Part shown: positions 3,873 through 22,619 of the stretch, piece by piece
Position numbering within the stretch: the stretch's first letter is position 1
How the letters are laid out: each line of letters begins with the position of its first letter
Notes under the pieces: generated by a model
Told to the model about the DNA's origin: nothing
Database searches by the model: none
Seen by the model: the letters and a program-made list of their open reading frames with translations, nothing else
Position numbers and translations under genes: made by a program
NCBI GenBank assembly: GCA_958510825.1
Contig: OY294044.1
Span: 38,985,816 to 39,049,815 of the forward strand
From: Brachypterus glaber
Lineage: Eukaryota; Arthropoda; Insecta; Coleoptera; Kateretidae
DNA length: 64,000 bases
Direction: 5' to 3'

Positions 3873-4267
3873 TGTTGGCGCCCCCTAGAACAATGGCCTC
3901 TTTGTCTATCTTATTTTGCTGACTTAAGCAGTATTCATTTAATATAAATAGAGCTCCGCCTAGATAACCCTCAGAGCTGTATTAGACCTGAGTTAGATCG
4001 CACGTATCTTAAATTAGAGTTATCTCAAATCTATCTCAAAGTTATAATCTTACAAGTATTAAATAAATATCATTATAAATATTAAACAAGTGTCTAAATC
4101 AAGAACATCTAGAACATTTAATCCTTATAGTGAAGAAACTGTGACCATAAATACAAAATAACTGTGAAGTTATAAAATAAGTTTCGGAACCTCTTAATAA
4201 AAGGTTGCCCTGGTGTCAGAAGTAAATTAACCTTTTTTTTATGTTGTGTTGATCAAGGAATACAACA
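3873..4267 (+). repeat. 5' LTR of gypsy element G1
   Basis: 395 bp, TGTTG...CAACA. By eye it differs from the 3' LTR at 22225-22619 at only about three positions, so the insertion is recent. A 4-bp target duplication ATCT (3869-3872 and 22620-22623) frames the element. The LTR holds a TATA-like box (3943-3950), an AATAAA (4062-4067) and an internal copy of the leader motif TGGTGTCAGAAGT (4211-4223). Confidence 0.95.
3943..3950 (+). promoter_or_regulatory. TATA-like box in the G1 5' LTR
   Basis: TATAAATA lies about 70 bp into the LTR and AATAAA lies about 115 bp after it, the expected order for U3-R signals. In the 3' LTR the box has changed to TATGAATA. Transcription start not determined. 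Confidence 0.4.
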
Positions 4268-8123: not shown

Positions 8124-8528
8124 TGTTGTATTCCTTAATCAACACAACAAAAAAAAAGGTTAATTTACTTCTGACACCAGGGCAACCTTTTGTTAAGAGG
8201 TTCCGAAACTTATTTTATAACTTCACAGTTATTTTGTATTTATAGTCACAGTTTCTTCACTATAAGGTTTAAATGTTCTAGATGTTCTTGATTTAGACAC
8301 TTGTTTATTATTTATAATGATATTTATTTAACACTTGTAAGATTATAACTTTGAGATAGATTTGAGATAGTTTTGAGATAACTCTAATTTAAGATACGTG
8401 CGATCTAACTCAGGTCTAATACAGCTCTGAGGGTAATCTAGGCGAAGCTCTATTTATATTAAATGGATACTGCTTAAGTCAGCAAAATAAGATAGACAAA
8501 GAGGCCATTGTTCTAGGGGGCGCCAACA
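8124..8528 (-). repeat. 3' LTR of gypsy element G2 (left end on this strand)
   Basis: 405 bp, TGTTG...CAACA. It matches the other G2 LTR at 16743-17144 with a few substitutions and a short poly-A indel. Compared with the G1 LTRs, both G2 LTRs carry about ten extra bases in the TATCTCAA region, so G2 belongs to a slightly different subfamily. Confidence 0.95.
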
Positions 8529-8781
8529 CCTCGGGGCTGTTATAGATTTTTGTTGAGCTTTTGAAAAAAGTGAGAACAAAAATCTCAAAAATGTTAAAAT
8601 ATAAAATTAACTTAAGATATTTGATTTTAAAATTAACTTAAGATACTTAATTTAAAAATTTGAGATATGTAAGATATATAAGATATTTGAACTTAAAACT
8701 AAAATATTTGATTAAAATAATGTAAATATATAAAATTATTAAAATAATATAAAGTATAAGTAAAGTATAAAATAATATATT

Positions 8782-11041
8782 TCAGTTTTGATTTATTTTC
8801 TTTTTCTTCTGAAGTCGACTGGAACGTCTAACTGAAGAAGTGGAATCTTGGGGCTCATCGTTCTGGGTTTTAGTTGTATACTCTAACGGAATGGGGTAGT
8901 TCAATCGTTGAAGTTCTGCGTCATAATGGATTAATGTTGGATGCTGAATGGGCTCTTTATGACATTGGTTGTAGATTTGTACGCATAGGCCACATGAAGA
9001 AGTTTTTCTTAAACATTTTCCTATAATGTTTGTGAATCCAAATTGTTTTAGAAGTTTGTATAAAATATATAATATTGCCAAGCCAGTGATTATTGAAAGG
9101 GTTGAAGTATACCAAAATGTTTGTTTGAATGGGGTAGTTCAATCGTTGAAGTTCTGCGTCATAATGGATTAATGTTGGATGCTGAATGGGCTCTTTATGA
9201 CATTGGTTGTAGATTTGTACGCATAGGCCACATGAAGAAGTTTTTCTTAAACATTTTCCTATAATGTTTGTGAATCCAAATTGTTTTAGAAGTTTGTATA
9301 AAATATATAATATTGCCAAGCCAGTGATTATTGAAAGGGTTGAAGTATACCAAAATGTTTGTTTGACAATAAAAGGTTTATTGAGTTGTTCTTGAAGTTG
9401 CTCATCAAACTGGTTAAGTTTTTGTTGGGCATATTTTAATTCATGAAGATCCAAATTATTTAATTTTATTGGATCCAAATGGATTTCGTTGAGTGCAAGA
9501 TTTTTTCTTAATTTTCGGCAGCAGTCATCTTGAGTTATATCTGTGAGTGGGATTTCGTTGGTTAGATTATATGTTTCCATAACCATTTTGTGTTTGTAAG
9601 GAAACTTGATTTGTGAATGCTTTACAATTCGACTTTAAATTTAAAAGTCCTGCGTTTTTTATGACTTCTTGAATGCTGTCATCTTTGTCACAAAGAATTG
9701 ATAATTGGGTTGGTTTGGAAGTTACATAGAACCATTGATTTTGTTGCAACTGGTGCCAAATTTCCATTTCTGCTACAAGATTTCTTGTTTGACAAGTTTT
9801 TGGGATTTTGATTGTTGTTTTCATGAGGAGTTGAACTTCACATTCGTCTGCTGTAGTTTTATTTAGAGTTGGTAGGTTTTTGCATATCCATTTTGAAGGA
9901 ATGTATTGAGTGCATCGTTCAAGATTTTCGATCATAATATAAAATGTCCGAGAAGAGGATAAAAGGATATAAGGTTTAGAAGGCTCAATATATGAAAATA
10001 AGGAAGCATCGTCTTTATGTGGGTTTGGAAGAGAGAATATTTGATACAAATCATATTCATTTGCTAAAACAATTGGTATCTCAAAAGGTATTACCAATAA
10101 TTTACTTTTTATAAATGATCTTAATGTTATTATTTTATAATTTTTTTTTTATTTTATAATAATGATAAATATTTTCTAAAGATAATGGAATAGGTAATGT
10201 ATATTTTGTAGATATTTTTTGTAACTCTCGATATAATGTTTCTGGTGATAAAATTCTATAGTTTATAATGCCATTTTGAATTAACGAAACGTCATTAACA
10301 TAGTTTTCTAAAAGAGTTTGAATTTCGTCAGTCATTTCAATAAGTAAGATTAAATGATTAGATATTTCAATTTCAAAATCCAACTGTTGTTTAAAATCTT
10401 GTACTTCTTGAGTAAATTTATTAAATTTTTCAATTATTTAATTATTATTTAAAGTTAAAATATTTTCATTCATGCGTATAACTGAATTATTAAAATTAGA
10501 TATTGTTTGAGATATTATTGAAACTTGCTGTTGCATTAAAAATTTGATTAATAGAGTCCGTATAAAATTGAGCATCATTAGCATCTGGTGTGCCAAAAAG
10601 CCATTTAAATGCGTCACCGACTATATTTAAGATACCACGTTTTCTGCGTGTAAGAACATTAAGTTCATGAGAGATTATTTTATAAGATTCTCTAATAGAT
10701 AAAAATTTAGTATTTATATATCTTAATTGATTTTTACAGTCTAAATTTATGCGATCGGCTTGTTACCAAATTGCATAGATCTAGTGATAAGGTATAATAG
10801 TTATAAATTTGGTTTATTTGATAATCAATGTGAGAAAGATTATAATAAGTTAAAAGTGCGAAGTTGTCATTTGATATATGCGTTTATCAAGATTATGGTA
10901 TAATAGACCAGCCGTTGTTTGAAATGGAATAATTTCATATTTATTGCTGAGACGTACTAGGCCTTTATTCGGTAAAGTCAGAAGGAAAATTACTAGGAAT
11001 ACTACGAAGGTCAATTTCTGATTCTGATTCAACATTTTCAT
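8782..11041 (-). pseudogene. env: G2 envelope glycoprotein, broken
   Basis: Homologous to the G1 env. It shares with G1 the frame break near 10675. Private damage: a stop in the coiled-coil region near 10436-10440, a deletion of about 26 bases near 10540, and a 238-bp tandem duplication of the C-terminal transmembrane part (8889-9126 and 9127-9364) that shifts the frame. The glutamate codon that is a stop in G1 (20827) is intact here. The C-terminal tail with a KKKKINQN-like end is preserved at 8782. Confidence 0.85.
8889..9364. repeat. 238-bp tandem duplication in G2 env
   Basis: Unit 8889-9126 is repeated at 9127-9364, joined at a short shared GAAT. By eye the copies are identical. G1 has the unit once. 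Confidence 0.9.
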
Positions 11042-11945
11042 TGTTTTCTTCAATGTTATTGTCTGAAACAATATACGGTTTTAATTTATTGAAATGATGC
11101 GTTTTAAGTTTATTATTTATAGATAGAGTCGCAGTATTATTATCATGTATTTGTACTATCTTATAGGGACCTTTATAATTCGGAGTAAGCTTTTTCTTTT
11201 TAATTTTAGATAAGCTGTCATATAATAATACTAACTGATCTGCGTAGAATTTATATTCTCTATTATGCGATTTATCGAAGTAATTTTTTGAACTTTGTTT
11301 TGCTTTTATTTGATTATCTCTTGCAGTTTCTCGTAAAATTCTTAATTTATTAGTTATATCATTAGCTAGATCTGAATAATTAGGTTTAAATTTTGGAGAA
11401 TTTATATGGCTAGGGATTCTTGCACGTTGTCCAAAGACTAATTCGTATGGGGTTTTTTGAGTGGACTTATGTATACTTGAGTTATAACTGAAAATTGCTA
11501 AATTTAAAAATTCGTCCCAATTGTTTTGGTCTTTATTAACATAGCATTTAAAATATTCTTTTAATGTTAAATGGGTACGTTCTAGTGCTCTATTACTTTC
11601 AGGATGATAAGGAGTTGTAAACTTATGTTTTATTGTTAAAAGTTTATTAAGTTCCTTTATAATATTTGAGGTAAATTCGCGACCTTGATCTGATAAGAGT
11701 ACATTAGGAAAACCGAACTGTGAACAATATTTTATTAAATATATAGCAATAGTTGTTGCTTCATGATTTTGCATAGCAAATGCTTGGATGGATTTAGTTA
11801 AATCATCTTGAATTGTTAGAATAAATCTGTTATTATTTTGAGTTTCTGGTAAAGGTCCGATTACATCCATTGCAATTTTTTCATTAAATTTAGAAGCTGT
11901 GGTAGTTATTAACATGGGGCTTTTATTATGTCTAAAGTCTGTTTT
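10965..11945 (-). pseudogene. pol: G2 integrase catalytic and C-terminal part
   Basis: Contains the integrase core with MDVIGP (first Asp), LLSDQGREF (second Asp) and ALERTHLTLKE (Glu), then the C-terminal LTPNYKGPYKIVQ domain. The Gly before ALERT seen in G1 is Arg here. It is separated from the upstream RNase H-macro frame by a one-base loss in an A run near 11990. The end is shortened by a stop that replaces a Ser codon of G1. Confidence 0.85.
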
Positions 11946-13492
11946 AGATTTTTGACAAATTTGACAATTTTTAATATAGTTTTTAATTTCTTTTTCATAT
12001 TATCCCAAAAATAATATTGTTTAATTTTTTCATAGGTTCGTTCAAAACCTTGATGACCTGCAGATGGCAAATCATGATTTTCTTGTAGAATAATTTTAAT
12101 TAGATCTGGGTCTGTTAAAGTAATACGTTCATCGGAAAGTATTTCATACTTAAAGTCCCTAAATAAAAAATATAATAAAGTATAAAATGTATCTTGTTTA
12201 ATAATATCATTATTTTCTGGAATATCTGGTATAGTAAAATATTTAGTTTCATTATGTTGCAATAAAAGTCTAAGATTATAAAGTGTGTCAAATAGAATTT
12301 CATAAAGTGCGGATTCATCTATAAATTCCTTAATAAAAGCTAAATAAAGAGATTGTTGAGGTAATCGTTTTAAATTTATTTCTTTTATTTTCGCATTAGG
12401 AATAGTTAAATTGTGTTTGTAAATATAATCAATGTATTTATTATTGTTTGATAAGTCACAGGATAAAGGAATTACAAACTTTTTTATCCTGTTTAAGGGA
12501 GTATTTACTATAGTTGGTTTAGGAATTCTAATTTCTCTTTGATGAAAATTTTGAAAGTTATCAAATGTTAAATCTTCTTCTGGTTGAATATAGTTAACAT
12601 TATGTTGTTCTTTTATAAAAATATATACTTTTATTTTTGAAACTTTAAAAATAAATTTAATTAAATTGAAAATAATATTCCATTCGAGTTTATCTAATCC
12701 ACAAGCGATTTGTGGCATAGAAACTTCAGTTTCTTTGAATTTTATTAATAACGATTTTAAATATTCTAAAGACTGAGAAACAGTTTTATAAGTAGGTTTA
12801 TCAAAATAATTTTCTTTTGTAATTAAGTAATATATTTTTCTACCATGTTCATTTATAAAAGCTACTTCACCTACTTTTTTATTTTGATTTTTGAGTACAT
12901 CGACAGACTTAAATTTGTTTTTAAAATCCAGTGCAATACCTTTATTCCTGTAAAAATCTTTTGATACACAGTGAGCTAATGATCTTTTATTTAAGGGGTT
13001 AAAAATGTTATCGTGAATTATTATGACATTCTCATTTTTAACATTTAAGTTATTATTTATGATTTTATCAATAGAAACTTGATTATTTGAATCAGTTTTT
13101 TCTAATTTTAAACGACTAAGTGCATCAGAATTAATATTGTCTTTTCCCGCTTTATATTTGATTTCATATTCGTAATCCATTAATTTTAAGCGCCATCTTA
13201 AGAGTTTACTAGAAGGGTCTTTGCAGTTATTTAACCAAATTAATGGTTTATGATCGCAATATATATCGAATTTTTTCCCAAAAAGATAAGGTCTAAAATG
13301 TTTACAAGACTCTACGATTGCAAACAATTCTTTTTCAGTAGTAGAATAATTTTGTTGCGCCTTGTTAAGGGTTTTTGAAAAATAGGAAATTGGTAAGTCC
13401 TTTCCTTGAGTTTCCTGCGATAATATGCCTGATATTTGGTCATTTGAAGAATCGCAAGTAAGACTAAATTTTTTATTAAAATTAGGATATTG
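11946..13492 (-). pseudogene. pol: G2 RNase H, macro domain and integrase zinc-binding region
   Basis: Continues from RT. RNase H shows TCDSSND and CDHKPLIWL; it is followed directly by the macro domain (12617-13027), a region of unknown function, and the HHCC zinc-binding part of integrase (AGHQGFERTYEKI). A stop near 13493 (Leu to TGA relative to G1) separates it from RT. Confidence 0.85.
12617..13027 (-). other. Macro domain in G2 Pol
   Basis: Same domain as in G1 at 18007-18420. LAHCVSKDF, NKGIALDFK, YYLITKE, KPTY and IACGLDKLEW are visible, with the catalytic Lys and Asp kept. Private changes versus G1: His for Arg in LAHC, Arg for Met before NKGIA, Glu for Lys before HGRK and Val for Asp before SKIKV. 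Confidence 0.8.
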
Positions 13493-14892
13493 TCATATAG
13501 GTTCCCTTGTTAAATTATTTTTTAATTTTTGAAAAGATAAATTACATTTATCTGTCCAGACAAACTGAGAATCTTTTTTTAATAATGTGTTTAAAGGTTT
13601 AGAGATTTTTGAAAAATCAGGAATAAATTTTCTATAGTAGCCAACTAATCCGAGGAAAGACTTTACGTCTTTTTGAGTTTTAGGAATAGCAATATTTGTA
13701 ATAGCTTCGACCTTTTCTGGATTTGGTCTTACACCTTTATCTGAAATAATGTGTCCTAAAAATTTAATTTCCCTATGTAAAAATTCACATTTATCGGGTT
13801 GCAATTTTAAATTGTGTTCCCTTAATCTTTGAAATACTGACCTAAGTTTATTAATATGATCAGCAAGGTCTTTGCCATAAACTATAATATCGTCTAAATA
13901 ACAAAAGCATTTTTCGCCAATTAAGCCGGATAATACTATCGACATGTTCCTAACAAAACTCGCGGGGGAGGTTTTTAATCCATAAGGCATTCTATTAAAT
14001 TCGTAATGTCCTGATGGAGTAGAAAAAGCGGTTTTGCACTTATCTGATTCTTCCACTTCAATTTGATGGAAAGCAGAGGATAAGTCTAGAACTGAAATAT
14101 ACAGCATTTCCGAGTTGATCTAAGATATTTTCAATATTAGGCAAAGGAAAAGAATTGCCTATAGTAATATCATTCAATTTCCGATAATCTATTACAAGTC
14201 GCCATTTTCTTTTACCTGAGGAATCTAGTTTTTTAGGAACAATCCATAGATTGCTAGAATAAGGTGATTTAGAATGTCTGATAATATTTTGTTCAAGCAT
14301 TTGATTTATTTGATTGATTTGATGTTTTGTATGAATAGAATGTTTTAGAGTTTTTGTAGAAGTTAAATATTCACCAGGTAAGTGAAATAAATCTGAAAAT
14401 TCTTCACAAATATTTAGAATGGCTTGATTTTCATCGGAAGTTATGTGATCAGTATGATTTTTTTCTTTTAAAATTTTATTTCTATTAATCTGATTATTAT
14501 TTATTTTTGAATTAAAATAATTAATTTCTTCAAATTTATTTAAATCTACTAAATCTAAAGTAGGTTTTTCAATTAAAACTTCATTTTCATTCATATTTAA
14601 AATAGGTATGATTATCATTATTAATTAAAATATCGGGAATAAAAACATTATGATGAATTTGTTTTTTCTCAATGAGACCATCTTTTAAATTATTCTGTGA
14701 AATATTTATTTCAGCAATAAATTCACAATAAGGCGGAATTTTTATTTTATTTTCTGATGTTTGTGAATTTTCCAATATTATTTCTTTCGGTGAAATTTCC
14801 TTATTAAGTTTTATTTTTTTATTATCAATGATTATATTATTATTACAAAGATCAAGTAAGACATTATGTTTTTTAAGAAAATCGGTACACAA
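13493..14892 (-). pseudogene. pol: G2 protease C-terminal part and reverse transcriptase
   Basis: Same RT motifs as G1 (WRLVIDYRKLND, YLDDIIVYGKDL). Damage: a two-base deletion near 14100 and a further frame change near 14620; a block next to VHEKEVNSQ of G1 is missing. Unlike G1, the YLDD region is uninterrupted here and shows the original continuation IIVYGKDLADH. Confidence 0.85.
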
Positions 14893-15174
14893 AATACCGT
14901 CAAAATTTGTTTTTAATTCGCCACCACTGACGACATGACTTTTGTGAGGAATAATTATATCATTTATGATAAATTCTAAATTTGCTGACCCGAAGGATTG
15001 TATGGAGTTATCGTTTGTTATACCTTTTATTTCAATGAGATCATTCTTATCTAAAGGGTAGAACCTGTATCAATTAAAAATGTTTATTTAAGGCATTAGT
15101 CATATTAAACGTAATTGTATTTAAATTTGAATTAGGTTGAAGGTTTATATTTTGCGAAATATTTACACATTTAT
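14893..15174 (-). pseudogene. G2 protease region with internal deletion
   Basis: Alignment with G1 shows about 40 bases lost just after the DTGS protease motif, plus a six-base loss upstream, so protease is broken in both elements. Confidence 0.7.
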
Positions 15175-16215
15175 TTATTTCTGGTTTTGAGATGGGAATG
15201 CACCTTTTTTGTGGTCCGTATCCTGAGGGACATTCGACACAGTGGACCCTTGGCAGTTTAAATGATTTACTCTTGGATTAGAAAATTGATTATTTTTAAA
15301 TTGTCTTTTTCTACATTCAGAAATTAAATGTCCTGGCTTTTTGCAATAATTGCAAAATTTTTGATAAGAATTATTATAATTATTTGTATAATTATTTGAC
15401 GTAGAAAGTTTATTGTAAAAATAATTATTTGAAAAATTAGGATTTGTATACCTATTTTGATTTGTATTGATAGGTGGACCTCTATAGGGACCTCTTTTAC
15501 GACAATTCTGCGAGTTATGTGAATTATTTTTACAATATTTGCAATACATATTTATATTCGTTTTTTGTTTTGTATAATTGATTATTTTTTCTTCTTGCAG
15601 AGCAAGATTATAGGCGTCGTTAAGTGAATTAAGTTCTCTAACTCGTAACATTTGACTGATTTCTGGTTTACAATGAATTATAAACCTACGTAAAGCAGTG
15701 CGCTGAATAGATCGTTTTAATCCAGGTAAATCCTAAAAATCTTCACAATTATTTATTTCAGATTGAATACATTCATTTTTTATTTTTTCAATTCTTTTAA
15801 AATAATCAGTTATAGATTCATTTGTAAATTGCCTGACTGTTTCTAATTCTTCGTGTGCTTGTTCAAGATGCTTTGTTTGACTATAGTATTGTTTTAATTT
15901 TTGTTTAAGTTCGTACCATGAGTCGATATCAGTTAATTCCAACTCATTTAGAACGTTGCTTGATAACTGTGCAACAACAAATAACAATAAACTATCTGTC
16001 TGATTTGGGGATGCTAAAGAGAAGGCACTGTTCGTATTTTGTGTAAACGTGTTAAGTTCGTGCCTATCACCCGTAAATGGTTTTATAAATTTAAAAAGTA
16101 CAGTTAATGGAAGATCATTGTTTACAATGATTGAGTTATCGTCGCTTATTATATCATTTTCATTTTGATTTTGATTTGGTTCTTGGCTTGATGTTATTGG
16201 ATTTGAGTTAGACAT
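15175..16215 (-). pseudogene. gag: G2 Gag
   Basis: Starts at the same ATG as G1 Gag. A Gln to TAG stop lies at 15733-15735, and a two-base difference near 15200 shifts the end. Both zinc knuckles are present. The Leu codons that are broken by a stop in G1 are intact, showing that the two copies carry different lesions. Confidence 0.85.
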
Positions 16216-16742
16216 TTTTGAACTTGAAATATATAACTTTGAACAAAAATTTTATTATTTAAAGGAGAGTTGTATAATAATTGTATTTTATTTGTTTTAT
16301 GAGTTATCGTATTTTAATTCTAATTTTTTTTTTTTATATTGATTTAAGACGACTCAAAAATATTTTTATTTTCAAGATAGACTCAAAAAATAATTATTTA
16401 TATCGTTTTATTTATATAGGATATATGATATGATGAACATTTATATTATAAAGTGAAAAAACTTGAAAAATGACTTACGTCTTGTAGTTCCTGTACAAAG
16501 GATATCTCTTCCTGTACTAGCTTGTACTCCAAGGACGTACTCCAGTACTCCAGTATACTACAGAACGAATCAGGATGAAGATGCAGGTAGGTACTTTTGT
16601 TAAGAGTTGAAACTCACAGTGATTGGAACTGGTTTGGAACTGGATTACCACTTCTCGTTACCACAATCACCCAAAATATTCAAACGTATTTGAATATCCA
16701 AAATGTTTTTGGAGTATCCCACTTCTGACATCAAAATTCCTA
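16216..16742 (-). other. Leader of G2
   Basis: Uninterrupted version of the G1 leader. It proves that the Penelope-like insert of G1 is an insertion, because GTTATATATTTCAAGTTC is continuous here. Contains the primer-site-like motif near 16715-16735 (reverse strand), changed at one position. Confidence 0.75.
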
Positions 16743-17144
16743 TGTTGTATTCCTTAATCAACACAACATAAAAGGTTAAATTACTTCTGACACCAGGGCA
16801 ACCTTTTATTAAGAGGTTCCGAAACTTATTTTATAACTTCACAGTTATTTTGTATTTATAGTCACAGTTTCTTCACTATAAGGTTTAAATGTTCTAGATG
16901 TTCTTGATTTAGACACTTGTTTATTATTTATAATGATATTTATTTAACACTTGTAAGATTATAACTTTGAGATAGATTTGAGATAGTTTTGAGATAACTC
17001 TAATTTAAGATACGTGCGATCTAACTCAGGTCTAATACAGCTCTGAGGGTAATCTAGGCGAAGCTCTATTTATATTAAATGAATACTGCTTAAGTCAGCA
17101 AAATAAGATAGACAAAGAGGCCATTGTTCTAGGGGGCGCCAACA
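16743..17144 (-). repeat. 5' LTR of G2
   Basis: 402 bp; see the partner at 8124-8528. Directly followed by CGAT and the continuation of the G1 RT. Confidence 0.95.
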
Positions 17145-17148
17145 CGAT

Positions 17149-20097
17149 ATTATAGTTTATGGCAAAGACCTTGCTGATCATATTAATAAACTTAGGTCAG
17201 TATTTCAAAGATTAAGGGAACACAATTTAAAATTGCAACCCGATAAATGTGAATTTTTACATAGAGAAATTAAATTCTTAGGACACATTATTTCAGATAA
17301 AGGTGTAAGACCAAATCCAGAAAAGGTCGAAGCTATTACAAATATTGCTATTCCTAAAACTCAAAAAGACGTAAAGTCTTTCCTCGGATTAGTTGGCTAC
17401 TATAGAAAATTTATTCCTGATTTTTCAAAAATCGCTAAACTTTTAAACACATTATTAAAAAAAGATTCTCAGTTTGTCTGGACAGATAAATGTAATTTAT
17501 CTTTTCAAAAATTAAAAAATACTTTAACAAGGGAACCTATATTACAATATCCTAATTTTAATAAAAAATTTAGTCTTACTTGCGATTCTTCAAATGACCA
17601 AATATCAGGCATATTATCTCAGGAAACTCAAGGAAAGGACTTACCAATTTCCTATTTTTCAAAAACCCTTAACAAGGCGCAACAAAATTATTCTACTACT
17701 GAAAAAGAATTGTTTGCAATCGTAGAGTCTTGTAAACATTTTAGACCTTATCTTTTTGGGAAAAAATTCGATATATACTGCGATCATAAACCATTAATTT
17801 GGTTAAATAACTGCAAAGACCCTTCTAGTAAACTCTTAAGATGGCGCTTAAAATTAATGGATTACGAATATGAGATAAAATATAAAGCGGGAAAAGATAA
17901 TATTAATTCTGATGCACTTAGTCGTTTAAAATTAGAAAAAACTGATTCAAATAATCAAGTTTCTATTGATAAAATCATAAATAATAACTTAAATGTTAAA
18001 AATGACAATGTCATAATAATTCACGATAACATTTTTAACCCCTTAAATAAAAGATCATTAGCTCGCTGTGTATCAAAAGATTTTTACATGAATAAAGGTA
18101 TTGCACTGGATTTTAAAAACAAATTTAAGTCTGTCGATGTACTCAAAAATCAAAATAAAAAAGTAGGTGAAGTAGCTTTTATAAATAAACATGGTAGAAA
18201 AATATATTACTTAATTACAAAAGAAAATTATTTTGATAAACCTACTTATAAAACTGTTTCTCAGTCTTTAGAATATTTAAAATCGTTATTAATAAAATTC
18301 AAAGAAACTGAAGTTTCTATGCCACAAATCGCTTGTGGATTAGATAAACTCGAATGGAATATTATTTTCAATTTAATTAAATTTATTTTTAAAGATTCAA
18401 AAATAAAAGTATATATTTTTATAAAAGAACAACATAATGTTAACTATATTCAACCAGAAGAAGATTTAACATTTGATAACTTTAAAAATTTTCATCAAAA
18501 AGAAATTAGAATTCCTAAACCAACTATAGTAAATACTCCCTTAAACAGGATAAAAAATTTTGTAATTCCTTTATCCTGTGACTTATCAAACAATAATAAA
18601 TACATTGATTATATTTACAAACACAATTTAACTATTCCTAATGCGAAAATAAAAGAAATAAATTTAAAACGATTACCTCAACAATCTCTTTATTTAGCTT
18701 TTATTAAGGAATTTATAGATGAATCCGCACTTTATGAAATTCTATTTGACACACTTTATAATCTTAGACTTTTATTGCAACATAATGAAACTAAATATTT
18801 TACTATACCAGATATTTCAGAAAATAATGATATTATTAAACAAAATACATTTTATACTTTATTATATTTTCTATTTAGGGACTTTAGGTATGAAATACTT
18901 TCCGATGAACGTATTACTTTAACAGACCCAGATCTAATTAAAATTATTCTACAAGAAAATCATGATTTGCCATCTGCAGGTCATCAAGGTTTTGAACGAA
19001 CCTATGAAAAAATTAAACAATATTATTTTTGGGATAATATGAAAAAAGAAATTAAAAACTATATTAAAAATTGTCAAATTTGTCAAAAATCTAAAACAGA
19101 CTTTAAACATAATAAAAGCCCCATGTTAATAACTACCACAGCTTCTAAATTTAATGAAAAAATTGCAATGGATGTAATCGGACCTTTACCAGAAACTCAA
19201 AATAATAACAGATTTATTCTAACAATTCAAGATGATTTAACTAAATTCATCCAAGCATTTGCTATGCAAAATCATGAAGCAACAACTATTGCTATATATT
19301 TAATAAAATATTGTTCACAGTTCAGTTTTCCTAATGTACTCTTATCAGATCAAGGTCGCGAATTTACCTCAAATATTATAAAGGAACTTAATAAACTTTT
19401 AACAATAAAACATAAGTTTACAACTCCTTATCATCCTGAAAGTAATGGAGCACTAGAACGTACCCATTTAACATTAAAAGAATATTTTAAATGCTATGTT
19501 AATAAAGACCAAAACAATTGGGACGAATTTTTAAATTTAGCAATTTTCAGTTATAACTCAAGTATACATAAGTCCACTCAAAAAACCCCATACGAATTAG
19601 TCTTTGGACAACGTGCAAGAATCCCTAGCCATATAAATTCTCCAAAATTTAAACCTAATTATTCAGATCTAGCTAATGATATAACTAATAAATTAAGAAT
19701 TTTACGAGAAACTGCAAGAGATAATCAAATAAAAGCAAAACAAAGTTCAAAAAATTACTTCGATAAATCGCATAATAGAGAATATAAATTCTACGCAGAT
19801 CAGTTAGTATTATTATATGACAGCTTATCTAAAATTAAAAAGAAAAAGCTTACTCCGAATTATAAAGGTCCCTATAAGATAGTACAAGTACATGATAATA
19901 ATACTGCGACTCTATCTATAAATAATAAACTTAAAACGCATAATTTCAATAAATTAAAACCGTATATTGTTTCAGACAATAACATTGAAGAAAACAATGA
20001 AAATGTTGAATCAGAATCAGAAATTGACCTTCGTAGTATTCCTAGTAATTTTCCTTCTGACTTTACCGAATCAAGGCCTAGCACGTCTCAGCAATAA
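17149..20097 (+). CDS. pol: G1 Pol, part 2: RT end, RNase H, macro domain, integrase
   Basis: Open without a stop to 20097. Domains in order: RT thumb (IIVYGKDLADH, LQPDKCEFL, FLGHIIS, FLGLVGYYRKFI); RNase H (LTCDSSND, CDHKPLIWL, SDALSRL); macro domain (18007-18420); about 170 residues of unknown function; integrase zinc finger (HDLPSAGH...CQICQ); integrase core with MDVIGP, LLSDQGREF and GALERTHLTLKE giving D, D, E; a C-terminal LTPNYKGPYKIVQ module. RT copies RNA, RNase H removes it, and integrase inserts the cDNA. The macro domain is not part of standard Ty3/gypsy Pol. The env frame starts within the last 100 bases. Confidence 0.92.
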   Translation: MIVYGKDLADHINKLRSVFQRLREHNLKLQPDKCEFLHREIKFLGHIISDKGVRPNPEKVEAITNIAIPKTQKDVKSFLGLVGYYRKFIPDFSKIAKLLNTLLKKDSQFVWTDKCNLSFQKLKNTLTREPILQYPNFNKKFSLTCDSSNDQISGILSQETQGKDLPISYFSKTLNKAQQNYSTTEKELFAIVESCKHFRPYLFGKKFDIYCDHKPLIWLNNCKDPSSKLLRWRLKLMDYEYEIKYKAGKDNINSDALSRLKLEKTDSNNQVSIDKIINNNLNVKNDNVIIIHDNIFNPLNKRSLARCVSKDFYMNKGIALDFKNKFKSVDVLKNQNKKVGEVAFINKHGRKIYYLITKENYFDKPTYKTVSQSLEYLKSLLIKFKETEVSMPQIACGLDKLEWNIIFNLIKFIFKDSKIKVYIFIKEQHNVNYIQPEEDLTFDNFKNFHQKEIRIPKPTIVNTPLNRIKNFVIPLSCDLSNNNKYIDYIYKHNLTIPNAKIKEINLKRLPQQSLYLAFIKEFIDESALYEILFDTLYNLRLLLQHNETKYFTIPDISENNDIIKQNTFYTLLYFLFRDFRYEILSDERITLTDPDLIKIILQENHDLPSAGHQGFERTYEKIKQYYFWDNMKKEIKNYIKNCQICQKSKTDFKHNKSPMLITTTASKFNEKIAMDVIGPLPETQNNNRFILTIQDDLTKFIQAFAMQNHEATTIAIYLIKYCSQFSFPNVLLSDQGREFTSNIIKELNKLLTIKHKFTTPYHPESNGALERTHLTLKEYFKCYVNKDQNNWDEFLNLAIFSYNSSIHKSTQKTPYELVFGQRARIPSHINSPKFKPNYSDLANDITNKLRILRETARDNQIKAKQSSKNYFDKSHNREYKFYADQLVLLYDSLSKIKKKKLTPNYKGPYKIVQVHDNNTATLSINNKLKTHNFNKLKPYIVSDNNIEENNENVESESEIDLRSIPSNFPSDFTESRPSTSQQ
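18007..18420 (+). other. Macro domain (TARG1/OARD1-like) inside G1 Pol
   Basis: About 138 residues in frame between RNase H and integrase. Seen in order: VIIIHDNIFNP, LARCVSKDF, NKGIALDFKNKF, GEVAFIN, YYLITKE, KPTY, SMPQIACGLDKLEW, IKVYIF. This order matches the ADP-ribose-binding macro fold of the TARG1/OARD1 branch. In human TARG1 the catalytic residues are Lys84 and Asp125; the matching Lys (codon 18220-18222, in ITKE) and Asp (codon 18343-18345, in CGLD) are present. If active it would remove ADP-ribose from Glu/Asp or hydrolyse O-acetyl-ADP-ribose. The family match is my reading, without a search. Confidence 0.82.
18421..18945 (+). other. Pol region of unknown function between macro domain and integrase
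   Basis: About 170 residues, rich in Asn, Ile and Leu, predicted mostly helical by eye (LYEILFDTLYNLRLLL). It is conserved in G2. I recognise no catalytic motif. It may be a linker to integrase or an accessory module acquired with the macro domain. Confidence 0.5.
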
Positions 20098-21981
20098 ATA
20101 TGAAATTATTCCATTACAAACAACGGCTGGTCTATTATACCATAATCTTGGTAAAACGCATATATCAAATGACAACTTCGCACTTTTAACTTATTATAAT
20201 CTTTTTCACATTGAGTATCAAATAAACCAAATTTATAACTATTATACCTTATCACTAGATCTATGCAATTTGGAACAAGCCGATCGCATAAATTTAGACT
20301 GTAAAAATCAATTAAGATATATAAATACTAAATTTTATCTATTAGAGAATCTTATAAAATAATCTCTCATGAACTTAATGTTCTTACACGCAGAAAACGT
20401 GGTATCTTAAATATAGTCGGTGACGCATTTAAATGGCTTTTTGGCACACCAGATGCTGATGCTCAATTTTATACGGACTCTATTAATCAAATTATAAATA
20501 ATCAAAAACAAACTGAAGTTTTAATGCAACAGCAAGTTTCAATAATATCTCAAACAATATCTAATTTTAATAATTCAGTTATACGCATGAATGAAAATAT
20601 TTTAACTTTAAATAATAATCTTGAAAAATTTAATAAATTTACTCAAGAAGTACAAGATTTTAAACAACAGTTGGATTTTGAAATTGAAATATCTAATCAT
20701 TTAATCTTACTTATTGAAATGACTGACGAAATTCAAACTCTTTTAGAAAACTATGTTAATGACGTTTCGTTAATTCAAAATGGCATTATAAACTATAGAA
20801 TTTTATCACCAGAAACATTATATCGATAGTTACAAAAAATATCTACAAAATATACATTACCTATTCCATTATCTTTAGGAAATATTTATCATTATTATAA
20901 AATAATAACATTAAGATCATTTATAAAAAGTAAATTATTGGTAATATCTTTTGAGATACCAATTGTTTTAGCAAATGAATATGATTTGTATCAAATATTC
21001 TCTCTTCCAAACCCACATAAAGACGATGCTTCCTTATTTTCATATATTAAGCCTTCTAAACCTTATATCCTTTTATCCTCTTCTCGGACATTTTATATTA
21101 TGATCGAAAATCTTGAACGATGCACTCAATACATACCAACTTTAAAGAAAACTACAGCAGACGAATGTGAAGTTCAACTTCTCATGAAAACAACAATCAA
21201 AATCCCAAAAACTTGTCAAACAAGAAATCTTGTAGCAGAAATGGAAATTTGGCACCAGGTGCAACAAAATCAATGGTTCTATGTAACTTCCAAACCAACC
21301 CAATTATCAATTCTTTGTGACAAAGATGACAGCATTCAAGAAGTCATAAAAAACGCAGGACTTTTAAATTTAAAGTCGAATTGTAAAGCATTCACAAATC
21401 AAGTTTCCTTACAAATGGTTATGGAAACATATAATCTAACCAACGAATTCCCACTCACAGATATAACTGAAGATGACTGCTGCCGAAAATTAAGAAAAAA
21501 TCTTACACTCAACGAAATCCATTTGGATCCAATAAAATTAAATAATTTGGATCTTCATGAATTAAAATATGCCCAACAAAAACTTAACCAGTTTGATGAG
21601 CAACTTCAAGAACAACTCAATAAACCTTTTATTGTCAAACAAACATTTTGGTATACTTCAACCCTTTCAATAATCACTGGCTTGGCAATATTATATATTT
21701 TATACAAACTTCTAAAACAATTTGGATTCACAAACATTATAGGAAAATGTTTAAGAAAAACTTCTTCATGTGGCCCATGCGTACAAATCTACAACCAATG
21801 TCATAAAGAGCCCATTCAGCATCCAACATTAATCCATTATGACGCAGAACTTCAACGATTGAACTACCCCATTCCGTTAGAGTATACAACTAAAACCCAG
21901 AACGATGAGCCCCAAGATTCCACTTCTTCAGTTAGACGTTCCAGTCGACTTCAGAAGAAAAAGAAAATAAATCAAAACTGA
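19997..21981 (+). pseudogene. env: G1 envelope fusion glycoprotein, broken
   Basis: Frame 2 begins with ATG at 19997 or 20003, then a hydrophobic signal peptide (VVFLVIFLLTLP). It overlaps the end of pol. At 20360-20362 a TAA stops this frame, and homology continues in the -1 frame. There a furin-type site RRKR precedes GILNIVGDAFKWLFG, a fusion-peptide-like segment; a coiled-coil region follows. A private TAG at 20827-20829 breaks it again. The C-terminal half ends with a transmembrane segment (STLSIITGLAILYILYKLL) and a basic tail. This is the F-type envelope layout of insect errantiviruses and relatives. Such env genes are usually expressed from spliced RNA. Confidence 0.85.
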
Positions 21982-22224: not shown

Positions 22225-22619
22225 TGTTGGCGCCCCCTAGAACAATGGCCTCTTTGTCTATCTTATTTTGCTGACTTAAGCAGTATTCATTTAATATGAA
22301 TAGAGCTCCGCCTAGATAACCCTCAGAGCTGTATTAGACCTGAGTTAGATCGCACGTATCTTAAATTAGAGTTATCTCAAATCTATCTCAAAGTTATAAT
22401 CTTACAAGTATTAAATAAATATCATTATAAATATTAAACAAGTGTCTAAATCAAGAACATCTAGAACATTTAAACCTTATAGTGAAGAAACTGTGACTAT
22501 AAATACAAAATAACTGTGAAGTTATAAAATAAGTTTCGGAACCTCTTAATAAAAGGTTGCCCTGGTGTCAGAAGTAAATTAACCTTTTTTTTATGTTGTG
22601 TTGATCAAGGAATACAACA
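22225..22619 (+). repeat. 3' LTR of G1
   Basis: 395 bp; nearly identical to 3873-4267. Followed by the target duplication ATCT at 22620-22623. Confidence 0.95.

What the first reader, a model, noticed from the sequence alone, without database searches (positions are those of the whole stretch)
18007..18420. A TARG1/OARD1-like macro domain built into a Ty3/gypsy Pol between RNase H and integrase
Seen: in one uninterrupted frame, RNase H (SDALSRL) is followed by about 138 residues with LARCVSKDF, NKGIALDFK, YYLITKE, KPTY and ACGLDKLEW, then the integrase zinc finger. Known: TARG1 uses Lys84 and Asp125, and these motifs match that pattern with both residues present. Inference: the element carries an ADP-ribosyl hydrolase, perhaps to counter host PARP-dependent defence or DNA-damage signalling at the integration intermediate. 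I know of no standard Ty3/gypsy Pol with this module.
Basis: partly seen in the sequence, partly recalled or inferred. Interest (0 to 1): 0.88.

Follow-up and report, generated by a model that had tools for sequence, protein, structure and literature searches.

The report
Retroelement-borne ADP-ribose-erasing enzyme
A virus-like jumping element in this genome carries, inside its own polymerase-integrase protein, what looks like an enzyme that animal cells use to strip ADP-ribose tags off proteins and DNA, with its catalytic residues kept.

Summary

The host genome returned 150 macro copies (capped list), 132 without stops. Of 76 loci besides ligase 3: 54 RNaseH-macro-integrase, 4 RNaseH-macro, 7 integrase-macro, 9 Gag-macro, 2 no macro (most were chosen for a macro hit). 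Database proteins add two with the macro behind the protease.

Two additions. The stretch between macro and integrase zinc finger is probably a second, decayed macro domain. Macro and RNase H trees conflict (AU p 5e-4, 2e-8), so the module was swapped between element lineages or recaptured.

The window copy is split in RT by a nested element. Activity is untested. A review mentions fish retroviruses with macro-domain proteins, hence a new variant of a known kind.

The parts
18007..18420 (+). TARG1/OARD1-type macro domain, catalytic Lys and Asp present
18514..18906 (+). probable second, decayed macro domain between the first macro and the integrase zinc finger; Lys equivalent kept, Asp equivalent variable between copies and families
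17554..17865 (+). RNase H (RT_RNaseH)
   Evidence: Pfam PF17917 6.5e-36
18925..19098 (+). integrase H2C2 zinc-binding domain
   Evidence: Pfam PF17921 4.3e-22
19150..19437 (+). integrase core (rve)
   Evidence: Pfam PF00665 1.2e-10
17233..20097 (+). open frame holding the 3' part of Pol (end of RT to integrase C-terminus)
20938..21981 (+). Env fragment, baculovirus-F type
   Evidence: Pfam PF12259 4e-21, profile positions 307-571 of 609; separate ORFs 19967-20362 and 20524-20829 may be other parts of env (not tested)
3873..4267 (+). 5' LTR of the outer element (TSD ATCT)
   Evidence: LTR pair 99.2% identical
22225..22619 (+). 3' LTR of the outer element
8124..17144 (-). nested element of the same family inserted in RT of the outer one; LTRs 8124-8528 and 16743-17144 (98.3%), TSD CGAT
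12617..13030 (-). macro domain of the nested copy, 97% identical (4 of 138 residues differ)

Best explanation
The stretch is a TARG1-type (ALC1-like class) ADP-ribosyl hydrolase, captured from an animal OARD1-type gene by env-bearing Ty3/gypsy elements and kept as part of the Gag-Pol machinery. It most likely travels with reverse transcriptase and integrase in the particle and pre-integration complex. There it would remove ADP-ribose (or whole PAR chains) that host PARPs place on element proteins, on nearby chromatin or on the cDNA itself (ssDNA bases, phosphorylated ends), so that reverse transcription and integration can finish. Shown here: homology, fold, catalytic residues, constraint, recurrence, several placements within polyproteins, tree conflict with RNase H. 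Inferred: enzymatic activity, packaging, target, benefit and the source gene.
Against: No activity was measured. Within-family macro dN/dS (0.41) is higher than RNase H (0.12), H2C2 (0.18) or integrase core (0.21), so constraint is looser. Some related elements do without it. The window copy carries Arg at a position that is His in 71 of 73 loci, the nested copy carries Arg at a Met that is invariant in alignment A1, and the window's Pol is split. The target is unknown, and a binding-only (reader) role would fit most of the sequence data.
Confidence: 0.62

Rival explanations
1. The domain is a reader: it binds ADP-ribose or PAR to bring the integration complex to PARP-marked damaged or open chromatin, and catalysis is secondary or absent.
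For: Position next to integrase and C-terminal to integrase in one group resembles targeting modules (chromodomains at the Pol C-terminus are named in PMC12440569, passages). ADP-ribose binding alone needs the same fold.
Against: Both catalytic residues are kept in 73 of 73 loci, and the Gag-macro and protease-macro placements are far from integrase.
Confidence: 0.2
2. Passenger: capture was chance and the domain stays because it folds harmlessly in the polyprotein; it has no selected function.
For: Related elements lack it (L075, L076); looser constraint than RNase H.
Against: Retention in sequences only 49-63% identical with catalytic residues kept, several separate placements, and conflict between macro and RNase H trees, which suggest repeated gain or exchange.
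Confidence: 0.1
3. It acts in the producing or infected cell against an immune pathway (antiviral PARPs on Gag or Env, translation arrest), as proposed for viral MacroD domains, not at the DNA stage.
For: RNA-virus macrodomains counter host ADP-ribosylation (listing, passages of PMC7050489). One placement is on Gag.
Against: Class differs: the only solved structures passing 1e-3 by sequence are TARG1 entries, whose reported substrates include nucleic acid ends; most placements seen are in Pol.
Confidence: 0.25
4. The linker 18514-18906 is not a decayed macro but an unrelated integrase N-terminal extension that happens to resemble one.
For: hhalign to 12 OARD1-type database proteins only prob 44.7; PDB profile search of the linker finds no macro; linker-only model pLDDT 65.8 with no Foldseek E below 1e-3; linkers of six other groups show no similarity.
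Confidence: 0.15

Closest known systems
Human TARG1/OARD1 (C6orf130), ALC1-like macrodomain hydrolase
   Same: Fold, length, 42-43% identity in the structural alignment, Lys84 and Asp125
   Different: Stands alone in the cell; here it is fused inside Pol or Gag
DarG macrodomain (bacterial DarTG antitoxin)
   Different: 16-18% identity; part of a toxin-antitoxin pair
Insect endogenous retroviruses / errantiviruses (Ty3/gypsy with baculovirus-F-type Env)
   Same: LTRs TG..CA, 4-bp TSD, Pol order RT-RH-IN, Baculo_F env
   Different: Extra macro domain (and probable decayed second macro in the window's lineage)
[quoted passage not shown] 2009, cited in PMC4977317)
   Same: Retroviral elements that took up a macro domain (one sentence read; the 2009 paper is not held)
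   Different: Described there as additional ORFs in vertebrate retroviruses; macro class and position not seen by me
Lentiviral dUTPase between RNase H and integrase (recalled)
   Same: A captured housekeeping enzyme at the same Pol junction
   Different: Unrelated enzyme; no call tested this
Retroviral tether: original RNase H that lost its function, beside a newly acquired one (PMC12440569 passages)
   Same: Decayed copy plus active copy in Pol
   Different: There RNase H, here a macro domain; the history here is inferred

Membership tests
TARG1/OARD1 (ALC1-like macrodomain hydrolases) | Macro fold closest to TARG1 | tested here: met
TARG1/OARD1 (ALC1-like macrodomain hydrolases) | Catalytic Lys84 | tested here: met
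   73 of 73 loci
TARG1/OARD1 (ALC1-like macrodomain hydrolases) | Catalytic Asp125 | tested here: met
   73 of 73 loci
TARG1/OARD1 (ALC1-like macrodomain hydrolases) | Hydrolysis of acyl- or nucleic-acid-linked ADP-ribose | not testable with these tools
   Needs a bench assay
MacroD-type viral macrodomains | Closest relatives in the MacroD class | tested here: not met
   In the PDB by sequence only TARG1 entries pass 1e-3; alphavirus macros 9-13% identity vs TARG1 42-43% in the structural search
Insect ERV / errantivirus (Ty3/gypsy) | RT-RH-IN order of Pol | tested here: met
Insect ERV / errantivirus (Ty3/gypsy) | Baculovirus-F-type Env | tested here: met
   PF12259 4e-21, partial
Insect ERV / errantivirus (Ty3/gypsy) | LTRs with TG..CA ends and 4-bp TSD | tested here: met
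   TSD CGAT and ATCT
Insect ERV / errantivirus (Ty3/gypsy) | Place inside the errantivirus clade of an RT tree with named references | not tested
   Only an RNase H tree without named reference elements was made
Insect ERV / errantivirus (Ty3/gypsy) | Infectivity | not testable with these tools
   -
Decayed second macro domain (window 18514-18906) | Macro topology | tested here: met
Decayed second macro domain (window 18514-18906) | Catalytic dyad | tested here: not met
   Lys equivalent invariant in 6 of 6 rows; at the Asp position 2 of 6 rows have Asp (window and a copy of its family), 4 have Thr or Ser (read in the hhalign register)

The most novel reading that the evidence does not exclude
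Insects have an ADP-ribosylation-based block against reverse-transcribing elements, acting on cDNA or the pre-integration complex. LTR elements answered by repeatedly capturing and trading a TARG1-type eraser carried in the particle; in one lineage an older copy decayed into a structural domain beside integrase while an active copy was kept or taken on, as RNase H and its tether did in retroviruses.
Probability: 0.28. Interest if true: 0.93.

Novelty: new variant of a known kind. Interest (0 to 1): 0.82.

Why it matters
The viral ADP-ribosyl hydrolases in the review passages that I read are MacroD-type domains of RNA viruses (PMC7050489). Here a different class, one that also cleans DNA, sits in reverse-transcribing elements, at several places of Gag-Pol, in high-copy families. 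If active, it points to ADP-ribosylation as a real barrier to retroelement replication in the host (probably a beetle, inferred from the Harmonia relatives), gives a natural set of relatives with and without the module in one genome, and offers a case of enzyme decay and replacement inside Pol.

Tried and rejected
Chance resemblance: rejected by E 2e-32, fold and catalytic residues. Pfam gives no hit for the 138 residues alone; the Macro model reaches its cut-off for L014 and P0006 and stays under it for L030 (19.8 of 22) and P0004 (21.9 of 22), so Pfam is insensitive here and was not counted as evidence against. Unrelated linker: rejected for 18007-18420. Assembly artefact or single copy: rejected by the many copies on many contigs. 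MacroD-type viral macro: rejected.

Host OARD1 gene: not found. Searches with P0004 and P0043 fill the scored list with element copies, so I cannot say whether the module came from this host's gene. The host DNA ligase 3 (L029) has no Macro match at E 0.01, unlike that of Lepeophtheirus salmonis (P0004), so ligase 3 is not shown to be the source. One origin or several: the deep branches are weak (79/69); the Gag-macro form lies on the side of the OARD1-type rows, but that branch is weak too.

hhalign controls ran in global mode by a mistaken flag (A3 vs A1 90.8 there, 30 shuffles at most 0.2) and were repeated in local mode. A scan of IMG/VR (19 loci, 30-39% identity) was not analysed further. 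dS is saturated in many comparisons, so those ratios are rough. VIA on the 302-residue model listed only the first domain, hence the separate linker model. Basta et al. 2009 is not held. The AU group for the macro data follows the Pol lineage (the RNase H clade), the one for the RNase H data follows the 59-row macro tree (99/96); in the 19-row macro tree those three rows sit in one branch with P0126 and P0127 (85/82). Twenty-one rows were named; 19 entered (L065 and L059 gave no usable RNase H). Two of 28 macro copies, 1 of 26 linkers and 3 of 13 integrase cores hold a stop; the stop codons were skipped.

Full report

2. The surroundings. The + element runs from LTR 3873-4267 to LTR 22225-22619 (99.2% identical, TSD ATCT). 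It is interrupted inside RT by a second element of the same family in the opposite orientation, 8124-17144, LTRs 8124-8528 and 16743-17144 (98.3%), TSD CGAT. The nested copy has its own macro domain at 12617-13030 (-), 97% identical, in a 527-aa open stretch; its integrase lies in another frame. An Env fragment of the baculovirus-F type lies at 20938-21981 (PF12259, 4e-21). So this is an env-bearing Ty3/gypsy element of the insect ERV kind, and by LTR identity both insertions look young.

3. How common. A query with L. salmonis ligase 3, whose residues 800-938 are a TARG1-like domain, brought up a further set: 41 of its 44 matches lie in frames of 200-516 aa. Nine of this kind were opened and all nine are Gag followed by a macro; four printed stretches hold no other ORF of 120 aa or more. 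An Armadillidium OARD1 query brought up more families.

4. Architectures. I held 77 loci of this genome (L001 is the window itself), all but L029 (host ligase 3) and L075-L077 chosen because they had a macro hit. Order by best tblastn match, one strand per locus, for the 76: RNaseH-macro-IN 54; RNaseH-macro with no integrase match in the stretch 4; IN-macro 7; Gag-macro 9; RNaseH-IN without macro 2. In the IN-macro form the domain is in frame behind integrase and just ahead of Env-like sequence. L075-L077 were picked from an RT-RNaseH search as possible macro-less copies; two lack it, the third has it. From the databases: Harmonia Pols P0002 and P0003, Logan Pols P0125-P0127 with RNaseH-macro-IN, P0128 with the macro between protease and RT, P0129 (Molorchus minor) with Gag, CCHC knuckle, a protease-like stretch (by eye) and macro, and P0006 with an integrase C-terminus plus macro. 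I saw no stand-alone macro ORF in an element, but would not have recognised one as such.

5. Constraint. The Lys84 and Asp125 equivalents are present in 73 of 73 loci (L001-L074 without L029); the His of LAHC in 71, Arg in the window copy, Ser in L054, which is broken there. Among 131 protein rows (P0001-P0131, the window's own among them) Lys is kept in 131 and Asp in 129. Within the window's family (copies at least 85% identical) pairwise dN/dS is 0.41 for macro (28 copies), 0.35 for the linker (26), 0.12 for RNase H (26), 0.18 for H2C2 (25), 0.21 for integrase core (13). In 12 named pairs across families, or in one case within one, macro gives 0.08-0.29 in the 10 where dS could be computed. 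So the domain is constrained, but within the family less than RNase H.

7. Module exchange. In the RNase H tree the window, L011, P0002 and P0125 form one starred clade (100/99). The macro data reject that clade (AU p 5e-4). Conversely the RNase H data reject the grouping P0002+P0003+P0125 that is starred in the 59-row macro tree (99/96) (p 2e-8). L010 and the window differ at dN 0.25 in macro but 0.47 in RNase H and 0.69 in integrase core. Either elements swap the module, for example by template switching between co-packaged RNAs, or they recapture it; the host gene was not found, so I cannot separate these.

8. Mechanism. TARG1 acts on acyl-linked ADP-ribose, on phosphates at nucleic acid ends and on thymidine-linked ADP-ribose in DNA; K84A and D125A are inactive in the assays named (passages of PMC7050489, PMC8501950, PMC5725667; PMC7050489 prints residue 125 as Glu). 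The host has PARP-family exons. In Drosophila without PARP-1 most misregulated mobile elements go up, some only without passing the authors' FDR, and the authors name possible indirect causes (PMC7712786, passages). Since the placements seen are on Gag or Pol, which are packaged (general knowledge), the common denominator is delivery with the particle. I therefore favour a role between reverse transcription and repair of the integration site. This is inference.

9. Prior art. Papers holding 'macro domain' with 'LTR retrotransposon' number 2 in the library; one is the fish review, which in one sentence mentions epsilon-like fish retroviruses with extra ORFs for CNPase or macro-domain proteins, citing Basta 2009 (original not held). 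The listings of the other searches showed no report of a macro domain in Ty3/gypsy Pol; only part of the longer lists was shown. In PMC12440569 (Troyka) the term 'macro' occurs 0 times; in PMC12992720 (insect ERVs) I saw passages for other terms only. Most subscription journals are not searched.

10. Verdict. Real, recurrent and constrained; a known enzyme class in a setting I could not find described. Activity and target open.

Noticed in passing
P0004 (Lepeophtheirus salmonis DNA ligase 3 isoform X1), residues about 800-938: A TARG1-like macro domain lies between the ligase domain and the BRCT domain of ligase 3; the host ligase 3 here (L029) has a long low-complexity stretch there and no Macro match.
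   Followed up: partly
L030-L034, L071-L074: High-copy Gag-macro element; no other ORF of 120 aa or more in the four stretches printed, so perhaps mobilised in trans; no CCHC knuckle seen by eye where the macro begins.
   Followed up: partly
L077: A copy whose Pol linker runs directly into Env-like sequence in one frame without an integrase match, an internal deletion or recombinant.
   Followed up: no
P0130 and P0131: TARG1-like domains fused to an ATPase-like protein (Entrophospora) and, by precomputed Pfam, to a protein with other domains (PF08719, PF13604; names NADAR and helicase-like recalled).
   Followed up: no
L078-L096: 19 IMG/VR loci encode distant TARG1-like macros, 30-39% identical, on contigs up to 394 kb.
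   Followed up: no
window 18007-18420 and 12617-13030: The two macro copies of the window differ at 4 of 138 residues, among them conserved positions: Arg for His at residue 20 in the outer copy, Arg for Met at residue 28 in the nested copy.
   Followed up: partly
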